Made by a program: the position numbers and the translations under genes. A DNA stretch of 64,000 nt from Acidimicrobiia bacterium (GTDB lineage Bacteria > Actinomycetota > Acidimicrobiia > IMCC26256 > PALSA-610): positions 796,795-860,794 of the forward strand of contig JAOSJK010000012.1 of assembly GCA_027494135.1 (NCBI GenBank), given 5' to 3'. Positions 50,007 through 59,918 of this stretch are shown here, piece by piece (within the stretch, counting starts at the first letter, position 1; each line of letters opens with the position of its first letter). The notes beneath the pieces are model-generated. The model worked only from the letters and a program-made list of their open reading frames with translations, did no database searches and was not told where the DNA came from.

Positions 50007-50987
50007 TCAACCGATGCGCGTGAGGCTGCGGCCATCCCGGTCTGCGACCCAGGCGGCGCCCCCGCCCACCGAGACGCCCACCGGGTCCGCCCCGACCACG
50101 AACTCGTCCAGGACCTCACCGCTGTCGGGATCGAGGCGCGAGACCCTGTCCGTGCTGCCGTGCGTCACCCACACACCTCCTCCACCGACAGCGATGTCGG
50201 TGGGGACACCCTCGACTCGGATCCGGGTCACCACCTCCATCGTCTCGGGATCGATGCGTGAGACCCGCGGCCCGCCCTCGGTGGTCACCCAGACTGCACC
50301 CTCACCCACCGCGATGCGCGTCGGGATCGTCGCGACCTCGATGGTGTCGGTGACCGAGAGCGTCTCCAGGTCGATCCTCACGACCGCGTCGGCCTCGGCG
50401 AGCGTCACCCACGCGGCGTCCTCCCCCACGGCGATTCCGACGGGAAACCCGCCGAGGTCGATCACGTCGGTCACTTCTGCGGCCTTCGGATCCACGCGCA
50501 CCAGCGCCTCACCCGAGGTGTCGGTCACCCAGACTGCCCCGTCGCCGGTGGCGACACGCGCGAGATCACCACCCAACTCGACCGACGCCACGGGCTCGCG
50601 CTTCCCCTTCTCCACGGCCACCAGTCGACCGTCACCGTGAGCCACGACCCAGACGCGGTCACCGTCCACGGCCAGCGCCAGCGGCTCGCTGCCGACGTCT
50701 ATCCGATCGCGCACCTCTGTAGCGCCTGTGTCGAAGCGCAGCACCTTGCCGCCTTCGGCGTCGGTCGCCCAGACGCCACCGGCGCCCACTGCCACCGACG
50801 CGGGGCGCGGGCCGAGCGGATATGTGGCGATGGCTGCGTCGTCGGGAACCACCTCCACCTCGTCGGTGCCCCTCGACGACACGAACACCGTCACTGCGGC
50901 CAGCGCTGCCGCAACGATCGCAGCGGAACCGATGAGCAATCGGCGTCTTCGCAAAGCCGTAGCCGCGCGTCGTTCCGAGCGATCCAC
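50007..50987 (-). CDS. Anchored YVTN/NHL-type beta-propeller protein
   Basis: About 326 residues from a GTG at 50987, two bases after the permease stop. The N-terminus is basic (RSERRAATALRRRRLL), followed by one membrane helix (IGSAAIVAAALAAVTVFV). The exported part is about seven repeats of about 40 residues such as PVGIAVGEDAAWVTLAEADAVVRID and PTDIAVGGGGVWVTHGSTDRVSRLD, here quoted in part. These form a YVTN-type propeller. It is co-transcribed with the ABC permease and may be the extracytoplasmic partner or sensor of the transporter; that is inference. Confidence 0.85.
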   Translation of the reverse strand: MDRSERRAATALRRRRLLIGSAAIVAAALAAVTVFVSSRGTDEVEVVPDDAAIATYPLGPRPASVAVGAGGVWATDAEGGKVLRFDTGATEVRDRIDVGSEPLALAVDGDRVWVVAHGDGRLVAVEKGKREPVASVELGGDLARVATGDGAVWVTDTSGEALVRVDPKAAEVTDVIDLGGFPVGIAVGEDAAWVTLAEADAVVRIDLETLSVTDTIEVATIPTRIAVGEGAVWVTTEGGPRVSRIDPETMEVVTRIRVEGVPTDIAVGGGGVWVTHGSTDRVSRLDPDSGEVLDEFVVGADPVGVSVGGGAAWVADRDGRSLTRIG

Positions 50988-50989
50988 GC

Positions 50990-52177
50990 TCAGCCGAGCC
51001 TCAACGTCTCGAGCGGTTCGAGACGCGCCGCCTTCATGGCGGGGTAGATACCCGCGACGGTGGCGACCGCGACGGCGAGCGCACCCGCCCACACGAGCAG
51101 CAGTGGGTTCAGCGTGAACACCCAGTCCTGCATCCGCGCACCCACGTTCACCGCACCTGCCCCGAAGAGCGCTCCCGCCAGCCCCCACCCACACCGACGA
51201 GGAAGGCCTCGATCATGAACTGCACGGCGATGATGCCCCGTGTGTGGCCCAGCGCTCGACGGATGCCGATCTCCGATGAACGCTGGATGACGGAGATCGA
51301 CATGACGTTCGCGATTCCGACCCCGCCGACCACGAGCGCCAGAGCACCCATCGCAATCACGACAGCCTGGAGCGTCTTGTCGACCTGGGCCTCTGCCTCG
51401 AGAAGTGACGACGGGACCTCGGTCGAGACTGTCTCGCTGCCGCCGAGCGCGATCGCGATCGGCAGGATCTCGACGCTCTCGTTGGTCGTACCGTCCTGCA
51501 CGCGGACGTAGAGGGCGGTCGGCTCGGACTCGACGTCGAAGTCCTTCTCGGCGGCGGTCTGGGTAATGAACGCCGTGTTGTTGACGGTCGGCACCAGGTC
51601 GACCCGTTCGAGAATACCCACGACGCCGTAGGTCCGCCCCCCGAGCAGAACGTCGCGTATCTCACTACCCATCAGTGAGAACTCCGACGCCAGCTCGCTG
51701 CCGAGCACTATCGAGCGGCTACCGCTGTCTTCGTCGGCAGCGTTCAACCAGCGGCCGCTCCGAAGCCCGACATCGAGCACCACCGGGAACTCATCGTCGG
51801 CAACGCACTCCTGCGGGGAGTCCCTCGAAGTACTCGCGGCTCTCCTCGGTGGGATACAGCTCGACGCCTCCGACCTCGCGGATCGAAGTGACCTGTTCGA
51901 CTGTCGGCACCCGGAGGACACGCTCCACCGCGGCCTCGGGGAGCACCGGCTCGCCACCGCCGCCACCGAACGCGTCGGAGGCGCGCACCACTACGAGGTT
52001 CGTTCCCAGCTCACGCAACGTCTGTTTGAGATCGCCCTTGGCGGACTCCGACATACCGACCGCGCCGACGATCGCGCTGACACCGAGCATGGGCCCCAGC
52101 ATGATCAGCGCTGTGCGGACCTTGCGCGCCCCCAGCCCCGCGAGTGCCGTGCCGATGATCTCCCTCAGGCGTCTCAT
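50990..52177 (-). CDS. MacB/FtsX-like ABC permease, at least two frameshifts
   Basis: The N-terminal part (from 52177) reads RKVRTALIMLGPMLGVSAIVGAVGMSESAKG, the MacB_PCD first helix, and continues to ESREYFEG near 51815. A second frame carries the extracytoplasmic domain, DDEFPVVLDVGLRSGRWL, then helices LVVGGVGIANVMSISVIQRSSEIGIRRALGHT. Near 51185 a third frame supplies the last helix LLLVWAGALAVAVATVAGIYPAMKAARLEPLETLRLG and the stop at 50990. Corrected length is about 400 residues. The start overlaps the ATPase stop by four bases. It works with the ATPase and the Calx-beta adaptor to move or pull on an extracytoplasmic substrate. Confidence 0.85.
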
Positions 52178-52959
52178 GCGCTGCCACCCCCGCTGCGCAC
52201 GAGAGTTGCGGGTGGACCCAGCGGGGTGCCGGGCACGGCGCGATGATCGTCGGCGATGTGCCCATCGAGCATCGACACTCTCCGAGCAGCGTGCGCTGCG
52301 ACCTCGCGATCGTGGGTCACGATCACGACGGCCGTGTCGGGCGTCACGAGATCCTCGAGGATCTGGATGACATTCGCCGCGTTAGCGGTGTCGAGCGCCC
52401 CCGTCGGCTCATCGGCCAGCACCATCCGCGGCTCCGTGACGATGGCCCGCGCCAGCGCGACACGCTGCTGCTCACCGCCCGACATCTGAATGGGGCGGTG
52501 GTCGGACCTGTGAGCCAGACCGACCCGGTCGAGGGCCTCGCGCGCTCGTTCACGACGCGCACTGACCGATAGGCCGCGGTACAGCAGGGCCGCCTCCACG
52601 TTCCCCTGTGCTGTCAGGTGCGGCACGAGGTGGAACTGCTGGAAGACGAAGCCCACGAAGTCGCCGCGCAGCCGCGACCGCTGGTAGTCACCGAGAGTCG
52701 AGACGTCGGTGCCGCCCACGCTTATCCGTCCACTGGTCGGAAGGTCGAGAATGCCGAGCAGCCCGAGCATCGTCGACTTGCCCGATCCCGACGGCCCGAC
52801 GATCGACATGAAGTCGCCGCTATGGATCCTCAGGGAGACCTGATTCAGCGCGTGCACCAGGACCGTCTCGCCGTAGGTGCGAGTCACCTCTTCGAGCTCG
52901 ATCAGCACTCCGGCTGCCTCCGTCTGCGCCGGCGATGCGGTCTCGCCGACGCCGATCAC
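52174..52959 (-). CDS. MacB/LolD-type ABC ATPase
   Basis: 261 residues. Walker A is GPSGSGKSTMLGLL, the Q-loop segment GFVFQQFHLVPHLTAQGNV, the signature MSGGEQQRVALARA, Walker B MVLADEPTGALD, and the switch His is in VIVTHDREVA. This is the LolD/MacB group of ATPases that drive mechanotransmission. It overlaps the adaptor stop and the permease start by four bases each, so all three are translationally coupled. With the MacB-like permease it forms the inner-membrane pump unit. Confidence 0.93.
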   Translation of the reverse strand: MIGVGETASPAQTEAAGVLIELEEVTRTYGETVLVHALNQVSLRIHSGDFMSIVGPSGSGKSTMLGLLGILDLPTSGRISVGGTDVSTLGDYQRSRLRGDFVGFVFQQFHLVPHLTAQGNVEAALLYRGLSVSARRERAREALDRVGLAHRSDHRPIQMSGGEQQRVALARAIVTEPRMVLADEPTGALDTANAANVIQILEDLVTPDTAVVIVTHDREVAAHAARRVSMLDGHIADDHRAVPGTPLGPPATLVRSGGGSA

Positions 52960-55431
52960 GCCGGCTTGACCTCCACGACGACCTGCTCATCGCCTTCGAG
53001 ACCTTCGACGATCTCGACGAAGGCACCCTCAGTCAGGCCGGTGACCACCTCGGTGCGCGTCAGCGATCCGTCGTCGGCCACGACGCGGACCTCGGTGGCG
53101 CCGCCGACGCTTACGAGAGACGCTACGGGTACGACGATCGCGTCCTCGGCCTCGACGAGTACGACGTCGACGTTCACGGTCGCACCGTCGACGACCGTAA
53201 GCTCCCCCTCCACCGTCACCTCTCCCGAATAGGTCTCGGCGCCGCCCTCCGAGACGTCGGGCGCGTCGGAGAGCTCGATGATGTTCCCGGGTGCCGTCGC
53301 GCCGGTCGCCGCCAGCTCGACGGTCGCGGGCAGGTCGTCGGTCAGCTCCGTACGGTCGCTGGGGCTCATCCTGACCGTCACCGTCAGCTCGTCCTCGGTG
53401 AGCTGCATGATCTCCATGCCTTCGGTCAGGAACTCACCCTCGTCGACGCGCACCTGACCGATCCGTGTCGGCCAGTCGCCGACCACGAAGTCGCCCGGCT
53501 GCATCCGCGCGTCGTCGTCGATGGTGAGGACTGCAATCGTCACCGAAGTCATACCCGCCGGGAGCACCACTAGCCCTTCCAGCGCCTCGAAGTCGGTACC
53601 CATCTGGGCGGTTCCGCTGGCCGTGTAGACGACGGTCGTGTCCTCGACCGGCGCCTTGTCGGCGGTGATCGTGAAGGTCATCGTGCCACCCTCCGAGACG
53701 GTTCCGCCGCCTGTGATTCCGAGCTCTGGAACGTCTTCGGACTCGATGGTCGTCGCGGCCGCCATCAGCTCGCCGACCTCGTACCCCTCGCCCGGGAGTA
53801 GCGTGACCCAGAGCGTCTCGTCGAGCTCGATGTCGTCGTCGTTGGTGGTCGCGATGGAGAGAGTCGTCTCGTCGGACGCCGCGAAGGCGAAGGTCTCGTC
53901 GGGCTCCGGGTAGTCGTCCTCGACCGTCACCGATCCCGACACGATGAACGAGACGTCGAGCTCGCCGGTGATCTCCAGGTCGGAGGTGACGGTGAAGGTC
54001 GCCGGCGTCCCCTCGCTCGTCGTCTCGTTGTCGGACTCTATGGTCAGGACCGGCAGGTTCGCGTCGTCCTCGATGGTCACCGTCGCCTCGAAGACGTCAC
54101 CGACCTCGTAGGCGTCCTCGGGGAAGCTCGCCGCCGTTATCTGGATCGTGATGTCCTCGTCACCCTCGATTATCGAGTCGGGGAGGGTCTCGATCCGGAT
54201 CGACTTGCTGGTGGAGCCCTTGGGGATCAGCAGCGTGTCTTCGAGCTCGACGTAGTCGATGTCGACATCGGGATCGGGGTCGGCAGGGTCTCCCGCCACA
54301 GCCTCCCCGCCGATCGCCAGCTCGACCTGCGTGTCGGCGAGAAGCGCCTGATCCGAGACGATGCTCACCGTCACCGTACCGCCCTCGGTGACCGAGATCT
54401 CCGTCGGATCGATCGTCAGCTCTGCGATCGTCTGGTCTGTGAGTGTGATGGTCGCACGCGAAGTGCCTCCGATCGCGTAGCCCGCACCGCTGCTCAACGT
54501 CGCGACGACGGTCTCGTCGGGCTCGAGGTCGTCGTCGGCGAACGAGGGCACGATCAGCTCGACGCGGCTCTCGCCGATCTCGAGCTCCACTTCGCCAGCG
54601 AGCGCGTCGTAGTCGTCTCCCGGAGTCGCGCTACCCGACACAGCGAACCTGATCGTGAGGTCGGCCGTCGCGTTGCGGTCGGAGGTGAAGATGAGTCGCG
54701 ATGCCTCGCCCTCGACGACGCGTGTGGGGCTCGCGGCGACGCTGATCCTCGGCAGCGGGTCCGCCTTGGGTAGAAGCTCTCCCCACCGCGGACGCGTGGT
54801 CCCTATCCCACCGCCCGCCTCGGGTACCTCCCCCCCGCGCTGCTCGACGATCCGTCCGGCAGCAACCAGGTCGTTTCCGAGGGTGTATCCGTCGCCGGTC
54901 TGCTGGAGCTGGACCGTCACGGTCTCGTCGGGCTCCTTCTCGGTCGCGCTGTAGCCGTGGTCGCGCTGCCACCGCACCAGCGCGTCGCGTGGAACCCGTG
55001 AAGTCGAGGTCGACCGCACCGGGGTCGTACCCGTTACGTTCGAGTATCTGCTCGAGCTGGTAGACGTCGAAGCCGACCGAGCCCTCTTCGATCGGGCGCC
55101 AGAACGGGAAGTCGCCCTTCGCGGCGATCGCCGGACGCCCGTCGACCGCGAACACCGCTCGACCCTCGTCTACGGTGTCGCCCTCTTCGACCTCGATGCC
55201 CGTGACCCGGCCGTTCGCGAGCATGTTCAGCGCGCCGAGCTCCTCGTGGCGCACCTCCCCCTGGACCGTTAGGACGTCCTGAAGAGTCCGTGTCTCGACA
55301 GGGGCGAAGACGATGATGTCGTTGCCGCTGCCGGAGCCGGAGCCCTCGTCGCCGGCCTGCTTGAAGACGAATGCGCCTCCAGCGAGGACGATCAGGGCAC
55401 CGGCGATCACAAGCCGCTTCTTCGTGAGCAT
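52956..55431 (-). CDS. HlyD-type adaptor with peptidoglycan-binding domain and Calx-beta repeats, one frameshift
   Basis: A signal-anchor helix (RLVIAGALIVLAGGAFVF) opens the protein. An HlyD-like hairpin start follows (VLTVQGEVRHEELGALNMLANGRV, in part; then VEEGDTVDEG). A peptidoglycan-binding-1-like unit is at YQLEQILERNGYDPGAVDLDF. The frame must change near 55005 by one extra base. Then come three complete Calx-beta-like repeats and a fourth partial one (for example VVEGEASRLIFTSDRNATADL and the DDDLEPDETVVATL acidic calcium-type loops). These lead into RIGQVRVDEGEFLTEGMEIMQL, the return half of the HlyD barrel, and a C-terminal VVEVKPA. About 825 residues, roughly twice the usual adaptor. 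It should reach through the wall from the MacB-like pump. Confidence 0.88.
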
Positions 55432-55492: not shown

Positions 55493-56146
55493 TCAGCCGT
55501 TCTGCTCGGCGTCCTTCTCCTGATCTGCCATCAGCTCGGTGGCAGCATCCGTCGCGACCTTCGCGCACTCTTCGTAGTCACGCTTGGAGTCCGTGCCCTC
55601 GGGGGGCTCCGGTGCACCGTTCGACGGGAAGAGCGCACCGTTCTCGTTCGGCGTGAGGTCTCCCATCGTCCATCCGCGGCGGATGATGCACTCCCGGAAC
55701 GCGATGAGGCCGGCGTTCTGCGCCTCGATCTGGTCGGGGTCGAGGTTCTCGGCCTCAGCCTGGAAGGCCTGGAACGCGTCGATGATTCCCGTTTCGTTGT
55801 TGCACCTGCCGAGCGCGTCGACGTACGCGGGGTCCATTCCCTCGGTCCCGTTCGGTCCCGTGGGCAGCTCCTCGTCGCCGAAACCGGCTTCCTTGATGCA
55901 CTCCCGGAACGCGGTCCAGGCGCTGCCGAGGCGGACGATCGCCGGGCCCTCCTCGCTCTCGGCGATGGCGAGCGTCGTGGTCGTGCCCGACTCGTCGGGG
56001 TCGGTCACCTCCACTTTCGCGTCGCCGGCGGCCTGTAGCTTGGGGCCGCCCGACGAACCGTCGCCGCTGTCGTCGCCGCCCCCGCCGCAGCTCGCCGCGA
56101 CGACGCCGACGATCAACATCAAGGCCACGAAACGAGTGGATCTCAC
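55493..56146 (-). CDS. Secreted lipoprotein, unknown function
   Basis: 217 residues. The signal peptide MRSTRFVALMLIVGVVAASC ends in a lipobox Cys at residue 20. A Gly/Asp/Ser linker follows, and a soluble domain with two Cys-containing repeats, AFRECIKEAGFGDEELPT and AFRECIIRRGWTMGDLTP, each like a helix-loop unit. The last segment is EECAKVATDAATELMADQEKD. It heads the operon that continues with the Calx-beta adaptor 62 bases downstream, so it is probably an outer partner of the ABC system. Confidence 0.85.
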   Translation of the reverse strand: MRSTRFVALMLIVGVVAASCGGGGDDSGDGSSGGPKLQAAGDAKVEVTDPDESGTTTTLAIAESEEGPAIVRLGSAWTAFRECIKEAGFGDEELPTGPNGTEGMDPAYVDALGRCNNETGIIDAFQAFQAEAENLDPDQIEAQNAGLIAFRECIIRRGWTMGDLTPNENGALFPSNGAPEPPEGTDSKRDYEECAKVATDAATELMADQEKDAEQNG

Positions 56147-56298
56147 GAGGGCGCTCCCGCCTGCTCATGCCGCACCGAAATCTTCACTTGGCGTGCACTA
56201 TATCTGGGACGCTCAGCAACTGTCCTCCCCGCCGGACGGTGCGGGCAGCAGGGGCGTCGCATGCGCGCCGTGCCGGTGCCACAAGCGTCGCGGTGGGG

Positions 56299-57965
56299 TC
56301 ATACCTCCACGACCACGGGGACGATCATCGGCCGGCGTCCGGTACGCCTGCTGACGAACTGGCCGGTCGCCTTGCGCGCCGTGCGCTGCAGCGCCTCTAC
56401 CTCGAGAGGCGTCTTGCCACCCATGGCATCGAGGAGCGCAGCCCGTACCTCGTCGGCACACTCCACAAGGAGCGGCTCGGCCTCCGGTGCGTAGACCCAC
56501 CCGCGCGTGATAATCTGCGGCCCGGCGAGAAGCTGTCCTCGTGTGGAGTCGACGGTGGCGAGGACGACGACCACCCCCTCGTCGGCGAGTGTTCGGCGGT
56601 CGCGCAGCAACTCGTGACCGACGTCGTCGAGCAGCCCGTCGACGTAGAGGTGATCGGCTGGGACTCTTCCGTCGAGGTGAAGCCCCCTCGTCGTCGAGTG
56701 TCACCCGGTCGCCGTCGACGCAGACGAGTGCGTGATCGTCGGCGACTCCCATCAGACGCGCCAGCCGCGCGTGCGAGACGAGATGTCGATACTCACCGTG
56801 CACCGGTACGAACCACTCCGGTCTGAGGATGCCGAAGAGGGTCTTGAGCTCCTCCTGCTTCGCGTGACCCGTAGCGTGAACGTCTTCGATGCCCGAGTAG
56901 ATGACCTCGGCGCCGCGGCGGATCAGGCCGTCGATCACGCGGGAGACGTTCATCTCGTTTCCCGGTATCGGGTGCGAGCTGAGTATGACGGTGTCGTCGG
57001 GGCCGATGTCGAGCCACTTGCTGGAGCCCGACGCCATCAGCGAGAGGGCCGACATCGGCTCGCCCTGGCTGCCGGTCGAGATCACACAGACCTGGCCCGG
57101 CGGGAGCCCCCGCCACGGAGTCGATGTCGACGAGCGCGTCCTCCGGGAGTGCCAGCACTCCGAGCTCCTTGGCGAGGCGGACGTTCTTCTTCATGGAGAG
57201 TCCGATGGTCGCGACCTTGCGCCCGGACGCGATCGCGACCTCCGCGATCTGCTGGATGCGGTGCAGGTGACTCGCGAAGCACGTGGTGACGATCCGGCGG
57301 CCTTCGTGTCTACGGAAGAGATCTTCCAGCACCCCGCCGACGGAGCGCTCGCTGCGCGAGTAGCCGGGCTCGTCGGCATTGGTGGAGTCACCCAGGTAGA
57401 GCCGGATCCCCTCTCCTGACGCAATCGCTCCGAGACGGGCCAGGTCGGTGAGACGACCGTCGACCGGGGTCAGATCGAGCTTGAGGTCGCCCGAGTGGAG
57501 GACGACGCCTTGAGCCGTTCGCAAGACCGTCGCGAACCCGAGCGGGACGGAGTGCGTCACGGGGACGAACTCGACGTCGAAGCCGCCTATCGTCCGGCGT
57601 TCGCCGTCGTGGACCTCGATCAGCTCGGTGCGGTCGAGGAGCCCCGCCTCCGCGATGCGGTTCCTCGCCAGTCCAAGGGTGAGCGCGGAGCCGTAGATGG
57701 GGAACGACAGGTCGCGCAGAAGGAACGAGAGGCCCCCAACGTGGTCCTCGTGACCGTGGGTCGCGACACAGCCGACTATCCGGTCGCTGTGCTCTCGTAG
57801 GTACGTGAAGTCGGGCAGCACGAGATCGACGCCCGGCATGTCGAGGTCGGGGAACATCAGCCCACAGTCGAGGAGCAGGAGCTCGCCGTCCGACTCGATC
57901 ACGGCACAGTTGCGCCCGATCTCGCCCAGGCCTCCGAGGAATGTGATGGTCAGCGGTGGCGCCAC
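56299..57965 (-). CDS. rnj: Ribonuclease J, two apparent frameshifts
   Basis: GTG start at 57965. The beta-lactamase-fold metal motif HGHEDHVGG is at residues 70-78. The other ligands are in VTHSVPLGF and HSGDLKLD. One base is missing in a G run near 57105 and another near 56690. Correcting them joins SVAG to LPPGQVCVISTGSQGEPMS and DDEGG to LHLDGRVPADHLYVDG. The beta-CASP part has SSHPIPGNEMN and HATGHAKQEELK. The protein ends RRPMIVPVVVEV, typical of RNase J. It degrades and processes RNA and is usually essential or strongly needed, so both breaks are best read as sequence errors. Confidence 0.93.
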
Positions 57966-58365: not shown

Positions 58366-59727
58366 CGGCTCTAGGTCGGTGCCGATCAGGACGTCGCCGA
58401 ACCCGGCGTCGACCAGCAGCCCGAACACTGCCTGCGCGCCCTCGCAGCCGACCCTCTTCGTAGGCGAGCATCGGGGGCCAGATCGGCGAGGTCGAACTCG
58501 GCACCGGGGTCAGTGCCCGCAGCGATCGCCTCGAGCGCATCGACGTACGGCTGCGAGACGGCGGTGTGGTCCACCCGAGCCCCTCGGCCGTGTAGACGAG
58601 CAGGAAGAACTGCATGCTGCCGCAACCGCGCCGGCCGACGGGTCGTCCGGCTCGACGACGAGATCGCCGTCGGGAGAGGGCTTCCCATCACACCATGTGG
58701 GCAGGAAGACCTCGATCCGGTCTCGCAGCTCGGTGGATCCGGGAGTGCCGGTGCCCGACCATGCGAGGAGGTCGTCGCGATACTGCGTCAGGTCCGATAG
58801 TGCGTCTGCGGGGAAGCCGGCCGTGTGCTCCGCGGCCTCGACCAGGCGGCCGAAGCCGTCCTGCAACCGGGCGATGTAGGCCTCGGTGTCGTCGGCGCCG
58901 CTCGGCCCGCCGGCTACGGTCGGCTCAACCGCGGCCCACACCGTGCAGAAGTCGCCCGACGAGGCGTCATCGGGGATCGTCCCGTCGAGAGTGGCCGCAG
59001 GCACGGGAACCACAGGCCCGGGCACCACTACGTGGGGCGTCTGCTCGTCGGGCCACGACGGCCCCGAGATCTCCTCGGAGACCGAGACCTGCGGAGGGGC
59101 GAGCGGGTTGCCGCAGGCGCAGCGCGTGCGCGGCACGCCCGTCGCGCCGACGAGGACCGCTGTGCCGGCCTGCAACACCGACTGGAACGGCGTGGCGCGT
59201 CCGCCGGAGAACCCGTGGTTGGTGACGCGGGTGTCGTGCAGGAGAACCAGCGGCTCGAGGGTAGCCACGTACTCGGCGATCTCGTCGGTGGCGATGCCCA
59301 GCGCACCCGCCCAGGCGTCGGCCTCGTCGGCGTTCGCCTCGAGGAACTCCACGAGAGCGCCGGAGTCGCAGCGGCTTGCCTCACCCGTCCCGCCGTAGAG
59401 CCCTGGAGCAGTACCGACGCGCAGAGTCGCGCCACCCGCAACGTCGGCCGACGCGGGCAGGGCAGCCACCTCGTCGGTGAAGTCTCCGTCACCCATGGCC
59501 GTGGTGAACGGGTCGGAGCCCACGTCGCCGGCCGCTTCGCGAACGACGTCGGCGGCACCGCCCTGCGCGTCGGCCGTGTCCGCCGTCGTGTCCGGCGGGG
59601 CGGCTGCCCCCTCGCCGTCGCCACAGGCGCCGGCCACGAGGGCGAACGCCGCCACGGCGGCGACGATCCTGGCTGCCTGTCGGACTCGGCTCCCGGTTGC
59701 AGATCGGTTCTGGCTGAACATCCTCAT
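58363..59727 (-). CDS. DUF6777-type lipoprotein, multiple frameshifts near the 3' end
   Basis: ATG at 59727 after AAGGAGAGACG. The signal peptide ends in lipobox LVAGACG near residue 29, then an acidic linker. The main domain has LYGGTGEASRCDSGALVEFLE, VLLHDTRVTNHGFSGGRATPFQSVLQAGTAVLVG (given here in parts) and TRCACGNPLAPP, the pattern I recall for DUF6777. A helical domain follows (FCTVWAAVEP, RLQDGFGRLVEAAEHT). After PSAGAVAAA the frame must shift three or four times within about 200 bases to give MQFFLLVYTAEGLG, SQPYVDALEAIAAG, PMLAYEEGR and EGAQAVFGLLVDAGFGDVLI, with a stop at 58363. Extracytoplasmic; function unknown. Confidence 0.78.
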
Positions 59728-59918
59728 CGTCTCTCCTTGGGCTCGTGCTCCTGACACCTGCTCGACGGAGGAGCCCTTCGCGATCCGACACTTCGCCCGA
59801 AGATTCCCTGCGCAGTCACGACCGCCGCGCAGAGGAACCACTCCAGTGAATCGGCGGTAAGGGCGCTCACCTGACGCAGCTCCCTGTCGATATCATCCAG
59901 ATCACCGCGAATCGCCAT
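59724..59918 (-). CDS. Small protein coupled to the DUF6777-type gene
   Basis: 64 residues: MAIRGDLDDIDRELRQVSAL, then a short hydrophobic ADSLEWFLCAAVVTAQG, then a basic tail. Its stop overlaps the next ATG (ATGA), a common sign of translational coupling. No family is recognised. The ATGA overlap and the amphipathic helix support it modestly. Confidence 0.4.
   Translation of the reverse strand: MAIRGDLDDIDRELRQVSALTADSLEWFLCAAVVTAQGIFGRSVGSRRAPPSSRCQEHEPKERR

What the first reader, a model, noticed from the sequence alone, without database searches (positions are those of the whole stretch)
52956..55431. Efflux-type adaptor with embedded peptidoglycan-binding and Calx-beta domains
An HlyD-like membrane-fusion protein has a peptidoglycan-binding-like unit near its N-terminus and three and a half Calx-beta repeats placed between the two halves of the adaptor barrel. 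Gram-positive-type cells have no TolC-type outer partner, so a long wall-spanning, possibly calcium-dependent arm may replace it. It is translationally coupled to a MacB-like ATPase and permease, and linked to a propeller protein and lipoproteins.
Basis: partly seen in the sequence, partly recalled or inferred. Interest (0 to 1): 0.57.

Follow-up and report, generated by a model that had tools for sequence, protein, structure and literature searches.

The report
Pump adaptor with looped Calx-beta insert
A family of bacterial export pumps, found here only in one class of actinobacteria, has swapped the usual helical "spout" of its connector protein for a cell-wall-binding part and a chain of calcium-type domains that seems to close on itself, and it comes with an unknown small lipoprotein.

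Summary
The described domains are real, but in this window the adaptor gene lies in two reading frames (54631-55431 and 52956-55019). Nearly all relatives encode it as one frame (50 of 52 named loci), so the split looks like an assembly indel or a recent lesion. It belongs to a conserved operon: lipoprotein, adaptor, MacB-type ATPase, MacB-type permease. Strong matches to adaptor and lipoprotein fall in the same 33 of 395 genomes of the class and the same 4 of 396 of the phylum sample. The lipoprotein (four invariant cysteines beyond the lipobox) has no reliable known family.

New point: the "half" Calx-beta is not a leftover. The missing C-terminal half sits upstream, just after the peptidoglycan-binding domain. 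Both halves break at the same model column; joined, they raise the Pfam Calx-beta score in 10 of 10 proteins. Their calcium-ligand positions are kept or lost together in 71 of 72 proteins. So the insert most likely folds back and closes on one composite domain where adaptors normally carry the helical hairpin. Calcium dependence fits most lineages but not one clade. A straight wall-spanning arm is less likely. The substrate is unknown.

The parts
55493..56146 (-). Conserved lipoprotein of unknown family, first gene of the operon; lipobox cysteine plus four further invariant cysteines
   Evidence: ORF; alignment of 36, five invariant Cys; no reliable Pfam, no PDB, no NCBIfam match; co-occurrence
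54631..55431 (-). First reading frame of the adaptor gene (in frame only up to about 54980): membrane anchor, lipoyl half 1, start of the peptidoglycan-binding domain
52956..55019 (-). Second reading frame of the adaptor gene (in frame from about 54989): rest of the peptidoglycan-binding domain, Calx-beta insert, lipoyl half 2 and barrels
54973..54997 (-). Place where the reading frame changes by one base relative to intact relatives
55354..55416 (-). N-terminal hydrophobic membrane anchor (read by eye; some relatives have a lipobox-like stretch instead)
55138..55272 (-). Lipoyl domain, first half (approximate limits)
   Evidence: weak Biotin_lipoyl match; Biotin_lipoyl_2 in 35 of 38 relatives
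54951..55077 (-). Peptidoglycan-binding domain (PG_binding_1), crossed by the frame change
   Evidence: partial match; 37 of 38 relatives
54855..54938 (-). C-terminal half of the composite Calx-beta domain (P0002 residues 165-192, model columns 78-108)
54753..54854 (-). Linker between the C-half and the first whole repeat; the matching stretch of the relative's model has pLDDT under 50
54432..54752 (-). Whole Calx-beta repeat 1
54063..54422 (-). Whole Calx-beta repeat 2
53733..54053 (-). Whole Calx-beta repeat 3
53508..53732 (-). N-terminal half of the composite Calx-beta domain, fused to lipoyl half 2
52959..53507 (-). Lipoyl half 2, beta-barrel and membrane-proximal domain of the adaptor
52174..52959 (-). 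MacB-type ATPase; GTG start overlaps the adaptor stop
50990..52177 (-). MacB/FtsX-type permease, two frame changes (about 51806-51852 and 51181-51238)

Best explanation
This is a MacAB-like export system of Acidimicrobiia with four conserved parts. The ATPase and permease drive it as in MacB (inferred from family). The adaptor sits on the permease with its membrane-proximal, barrel and lipoyl domains, but where MacA has a helical hairpin that docks on TolC it carries a peptidoglycan-binding domain followed by a Calx-beta chain (domains shown). The chain begins with the C-terminal half of a Calx-beta domain and ends with the N-terminal half. These two halves most likely pair into one composite domain at the base, so the insert is a closed loop and the two lipoyl halves are held together (strongly indicated, not seen directly). 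In most lineages calcium bound to the whole repeats and to the composite site would stiffen or lock the loop (inferred from conserved ligands). The peptidoglycan-binding domain would fix the adaptor under the wall, so that substrates taken from the membrane or the wall-membrane space are released into the wall (inferred). The cysteine-rich lipoprotein is a dedicated fourth part on the outer face of the membrane, probably presenting substrate or controlling assembly (inferred).
For: Domains in relatives. One frame in 50 of 52 named loci. Operon order. Identical genome sets for adaptor and lipoprotein, 33 of 395 and 4 of 396. Profile comparison places the upstream piece on the C-terminal columns of a whole repeat (E 6e-9) and the downstream piece on its N-terminal columns (E 9e-21), while four non-Calx segments gave E 0.005 to 0.5. 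Break at the same model column (about 78). Joining the halves raises the Pfam Calx-beta score by 3.7 to 10.1 bits in 10 of 10, and joining a peptidoglycan-binding segment lowers it in 10 of 10. Ligand positions kept or lost together in 71 of 72. The predicted model superposes both lipoyl halves on BesA (Z 16.6, rmsd 3.3, 234 aligned) and MacA (Z 14.6, rmsd 6.3, 266 aligned). No TolC-type protein in 21 of 21 genomes.
Against: The composite pairing was not seen in coordinates (the tool gives none) and pTM is only 0.43, so domain arrangement is not trusted. Joint ligand loss covers only three independent events; the sign test gives p 0.25 and cannot reach 0.05. L160 breaks the rule. A clade lost the ligands everywhere, so calcium is not universal. 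A co-evolution test had no power, because its own positive controls failed. Export, substrate, calcium binding and wall binding are untested. The window's own copy is out of frame.
Confidence: 0.62

Rival explanations
1. One reading: the Calx-beta repeats form a straight calcium-stiffened arm that spans the wall in place of TolC, and the half-repeat is simply degenerate.
For: Repeat number varies (2 to 4 whole repeats) and some members have longer inserts (L161-L163), as expected of a spacer. Peptidoglycan-binding domain present in 37 of 38.
Against: The insert begins and ends at neighbouring points of the lipoyl domain, and a complementary C-half exists with the same breakpoint. A degenerate half would not be expected to keep its ligand residues in step with a distant segment.
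Confidence: 0.15
2. The system does not export: like FtsEX it transmits ATP-driven movement across the membrane to act on the wall, with the adaptor as a calcium-gated lever and the lipoprotein as its target.
For: The permease has an FtsX-like C-terminal domain; the review PMC5985334 (passages) lists MacB relatives that signal or act in division; peptidoglycan-binding domain in the adaptor.
Against: The ATPase scores best with MacB; a full adaptor with barrel and lipoyl domains is the mark of export systems (general knowledge); no further gene is conserved around the 52 named loci.
Confidence: 0.2
3. The lipoprotein is the cargo: a LolCDE-like machine extracts it from the membrane and passes it into the wall.
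For: Strict genome co-occurrence; LolD models score well on the ATPase; some genomes have two or more strong lipoprotein matches (G335, G349, G371, G383, G300).
Against: Cargo encoded first in the operon of its own dedicated four-part pump would be unusual; LolCDE has no such adaptor (general knowledge).
Confidence: 0.12
4. In this particular genome the operon is a decaying pseudogene.
For: Three frame changes within about 4 kb in adaptor and permease.
Against: The frames on either side stay open, ATPase and lipoprotein are intact, and RNase J nearby also lies in two frames, which points to indel errors in this assembly of 77.5% estimated completeness.
Confidence: 0.12

Closest known systems
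MacAB-TolC (MacA adaptor, MacB transporter)
   Same: MacB-type ATPase and permease with periplasmic core domain; adaptor with lipoyl, barrel and membrane-proximal domains; model superposes on MacA (Z 14.6, rmsd 6.3, 266 aligned)
   Different: ATPase and permease are separate genes; no helical hairpin, no TolC; peptidoglycan-binding domain, Calx-beta loop and a lipoprotein instead
Gram-positive MacAB-like pumps (Spr0693-0695; YknXYZ)
   Same: Adaptor plus MacB-type pump without outer membrane; PMC5985334 (passages) states that purified YknX binds peptidoglycan
   Different: Spr0693 forms a hexamer with a helical hairpin barrel (PMC5768738, passages); here the hairpin is replaced
BesA of Borrelia
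   Same: Best structural match of the model (Z 16.6, rmsd 3.3, 234 aligned); an adaptor without the hairpin (PMC8277102, passage)
   Different: BesA simply lacks the hairpin, belongs to an RND pump and works with an outer-membrane channel
Acidimicrobiial adaptors with peptidoglycan-binding domains only (L148-L156)
   Same: Lipoyl halves around peptidoglycan-binding-like stretches, read by eye; possibly the ancestral layout
   Different: No Calx-beta match in 9 of 9; no strong lipoprotein match in their genomes
NCX1/CALX calcium-binding domains (Calx-beta)
   Same: Whole repeat 2 superposes on CALX-CBD1 (Z 13.3, rmsd 2.4, 108 aligned); five ligand-type positions conserved
   Different: Bacterial, extracytoplasmic, in a pump adaptor, and one domain is split across the ends of the insert

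Membership tests
HlyD/MacA membrane fusion protein (adaptor) family | Lipoyl domain in two halves plus barrel | tested here: met
   HlyD_3 in 38 of 38; RND_mfp model matched by 38 of 38, the shown member (67.5 bits) below the curated cut-off of 94.9; BesA and MacA superposition
HlyD/MacA membrane fusion protein (adaptor) family | Helical hairpin between the lipoyl halves (usual, not universal) | tested here: not met
   No helix longer than about 13 residues in the model, and those lie in the peptidoglycan-binding domain; some known adaptors also lack a domain (PMC5985334, passage)
MacB transporter family | MacB-type ATPase, permease with MacB_PCD and FtsX domains | tested here: met
   Best NCBIfam match MacB 228.9 bits for the ATPase, below that model's cut-off, which is for the fused protein; MacB_PCD and FtsX over the Pfam cut-off
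MacAB-TolC tripartite pump | TolC-type outer-membrane channel | tested here: not met
   0 of 21 genomes with PF02321, 7 of 14 controls positive
Calx-beta domain (PF03160) | Profile match over Pfam cut-off | tested here: met
   65.2 bits for the window frame, cut-off 27
Calcium-binding Calx-beta domain | Acidic ligand positions | tested here: met
   Five positions acidic in 83 to 98% of 139 whole repeats, redundancy not removed; kept in 60 of 72 composites and lost in a clade. Residue numbers of NCX1 ligands are recalled and placed on the alignment
Calcium-binding Calx-beta domain | Measured calcium binding | not testable with these tools
   needs a binding assay
PG_binding_1 domain | Profile match | tested here: met
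   37 of 38 relatives at E 0.01 or better; partial in the window because of the frame change
Known lipoprotein family (first gene) | Any reliable Pfam, NCBIfam or PDB sequence match | tested here: not met
   Among 36 members only scattered weak Pfam hits, best E 0.029; none in NCBIfam for 2 members; none in PDB at E 1
Known lipoprotein family (first gene) | Known fold | tested here: inconclusive
   best Foldseek E 0.83, best VIA Z 5.0 over 58 residues, rmsd 3.3
LolCDE | Lipoprotein release by permeases plus LolD, no adaptor | not tested
   LolD model matches the ATPase below its cut-off; one permease and an adaptor are present here

The most novel reading that the evidence does not exclude
The composite Calx-beta domain closes between neighbouring subunits rather than within one: the C-half of each adaptor pairs with the N-half of the next, so a ring of adaptors is stapled by calcium into a sleeve that replaces the helical barrel and opens or closes with wall calcium, with the lipoprotein as its gatekeeper.
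Probability: 0.13. Interest if true: 0.8.

Novelty: new variant of a known kind. Interest (0 to 1): 0.6.

Why it matters
What adaptors of MacB-type pumps do in cells without an outer membrane is posed as an open question in the review PMC5985334 (passages). Here is a conserved family in which the TolC-docking hairpin has been replaced by a wall-binding part and a calcium-type chain, plus a lipoprotein that always accompanies it in the genomes searched, so wall anchoring, calcium control and the fourth component can each be tested. The split domain is also a neat solution to inserting a chain of domains into a loop: cutting the array out of phase brings its two ends back together.

Tried and rejected
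Straight reading of the "half" repeat as degenerate: rejected after the upstream C-half was found. Conserved fifth gene: ORF clustering over 52 named loci found none beyond the four; the other recurrent clusters were mainly frames on the opposite strand over the same genes, or sets of few loci. Co-evolution of distance matrices between halves: no power, since pairs within whole repeats were no better than mismatched pairs. Independent-pair sign test: 3 concordant, 0 opposite, 1 without difference, p 0.25, underpowered. A first regex reading of N-half ligands failed for many rows and was dropped in favour of profile alignment. Eight rows lacking the C-half (L079, L080, L081, L084, L085, L087, L101, L120; the fetched stretch starts too late) were left out of the 72. 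In one search, 73 of 81 rows entered the tree (exact duplicates dropped) and 65 were counted. Fold search with the lipoprotein gave no clear match. Plasmid search with the read-through protein gave 15 records, none covering 80% of the query; of the five listed, two bore a name, both Calx-beta proteins. Literature: searches (Calx-beta with HlyD, membrane fusion protein, efflux adaptor, peptidoglycan, Acidimicrobiia; MacB or HlyD with peptidoglycan-binding domain) returned nothing that, from the listings, describes such an adaptor; only open-licence PMC papers are covered. IMCC26256 (L115) is described as an assembled, uncultivated genome and the deepest branch of Acidimicrobiia in PMC5962788 (passages), so I do not claim a cultured host.

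Full report
What is in the window. On the minus strand the adaptor occupies two overlapping frames, 54631-55431 and 52956-55019. Four intact relatives align to the first frame down to about 54973 and to the second from 54989, so a one-base shift separates the window copy from an intact gene. The permease changes frame twice (about 51806-51852 and 51181-51238), and RNase J nearby is also spread over two frames. The genome is a draft of 77.5% estimated completeness. Assembly indels are the simplest reading; a real lesion is not excluded. With the frame change read through by a four-letter code the protein has 824 residues.

Relatives. A search with the C-terminal half in 120 related genomes gave 35 with a match, the window's own included; 13 others matched at E 1e-26 or better, in long open frames. 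In 52 named loci from the GTDB collection both ends of the adaptor lie in one frame in 50; of the other two, L101 is cut by the contig start and L120 matches the N-terminus only at the first bases of the contig; 48 are complete within their contig. Pfam scans of 38 distinct members found Calx-beta in 38, HlyD_3 in 38 and PG_binding_1 in 37. In a class-wide search of 395 genomes, 33 (the window's included) had a strong match (215 bits or more) and the next best genome had 74; they fall in 11 family codes. In 396 genomes of the phylum only 4 had a strong match, all labelled own, same order or same class.

The operon. At 65 loci (52 named, 13 unnamed, seven of the latter apparently the same contigs as named ones) the ATPase was found downstream on the same strand in 63, the permease in 62 and the upstream lipoprotein in 61; every absence is at a contig end. 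The propeller gene was found in 1 of 65. No other conserved neighbour turned up around the 52 named loci. The lipoprotein alignment of 36 members has five invariant cysteines including the lipobox. It has no reliable Pfam match, no NCBIfam match for the two members tested and no PDB sequence match. Its model (pLDDT 82.2, pTM 0.57) is mostly helical without a clear fold match. A class-wide search found it strongly in 33 of 395 genomes (best match per genome 165 bits or more; next genome 31.7), the same 33 as the adaptor, and in the same 4 of 396 in the phylum sample. Shared ancestry inflates such agreement, but no genome had one without the other at these gaps.

The split domain. A model built from 60 whole repeats of the family found, in the window protein, a C-terminal half at residues 165-192 (model columns 78-108), whole repeats at 227-333, 337-456 and 460-566, and an N-terminal half at 576-641 (columns 11-77). 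Other members show the same order with two to four whole repeats. Single-sequence scores of the C-half are low (2 to 9 bits) and it was missed in some members, but profile comparison gives E 6e-9 to the C-terminal columns of whole repeat 2 and E 9e-21 for the N-half to its N-terminal columns; four non-Calx segments gave E 0.005 to 0.5. With the independent Pfam model, N-half alone scored 19.8 to 35.2 bits in ten proteins. Adding the protein's own C-half raised all ten by 3.7 to 10.1 bits, and adding a peptidoglycan-binding segment instead lowered all ten slightly. Nine adaptors with no such insert (L148-L156) had no match.

Calcium positions. Five acidic columns match ligand positions of the NCX1 first calcium domain (numbers recalled, placed on the alignment). 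They are acidic in 83 to 98% of 139 whole repeats (redundancy not removed), and the composite carries three of them in the N-half and two in the C-half. In 38 members the two halves agree in 38: 31 kept, 7 lost. In the wider set of 72 complete rows: 60 both kept, 11 both lost, 1 discordant (L160). L136, L082 and L086 have lost positions in both halves while both whole repeats keep all five (L075 keeps them in one of two). On a tree made without the insert, three independent pairs change together, none oppositely, one not at all; the sign test is p 0.25 and cannot be significant with so few events. A distance-matrix test had no power.

Structure. The adaptor model of L115 (pLDDT 82, pTM 0.43) has confident strands at 162-169, 175-177 and 182-188 in the C-half, between the peptidoglycan-binding domain and a disordered linker (191-229). 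Its best structural matches are BesA (Z 16.6, rmsd 3.3, 234 aligned) and MacA in MacAB-TolC (Z 14.6, rmsd 6.3, 266 aligned), spanning model residues 28-721, and CALX-CBD1 for whole repeat 2 (Z 13.3, rmsd 2.4, 108 aligned). So the two lipoyl halves meet in the model as in real adaptors. No long helical hairpin is predicted.

Mechanism. Shown: domain order, operon, co-occurrence, complementarity of the halves, absence of TolC-type proteins in 21 of 21 genomes with working controls. Strongly indicated: a closed insert with one composite Calx-beta domain. Inferred: MacB-like export into or through the wall, wall anchoring, calcium stiffening in most lineages, and a role for the lipoprotein as a dedicated fourth component. 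Substrate unknown.

Known relatives. Gram-positive MacAB-like pumps exist; Spr0693 forms a hexamer with a helical hairpin (PMC5768738, passages), and YknX is said to bind peptidoglycan (PMC5985334, passages). BesA lacks the hairpin (PMC8277102, passage). No paper found in the searches listed under Tried and rejected describes a Calx-beta adaptor. I rate it a new variant of a known kind.

Noticed in passing
window 56213-57965 (-): RNase J is spread over two reading frames (56793-57965 and 56213-57085), another sign of indels in this assembly.
   Followed up: partly
window 50007-50987 (-): A virginiamycin-B-lyase-like beta-propeller gene appears to start a few bases after the permease stop; found at only 1 of 65 related loci (L039).
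   Followed up: yes
window 58510-59841 (-): Protein with a strong DUF6777 match near the operon; not part of the conserved set.
   Followed up: no
L161-L163: Some members enlarge the insert further: L161 has a long charged, coiled-coil-like stretch within the insert, and L162 and L163 carry extra Ig-like repeats; several genomes of the same family code have two or more strong lipoprotein matches.
   Followed up: partly
L114, L096, L098, L099: Record titles say Bifidobacterium breve, but L114 appears to be the same contig (same number and length) as G043:C32, which is in the window's order: the titles look mislabelled.
   Followed up: partly
G000:C1:1037835-1039109 and 1000855-1001517: The same genome holds other Calx-beta proteins, one in a 1,517-residue open frame.
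   Followed up: no
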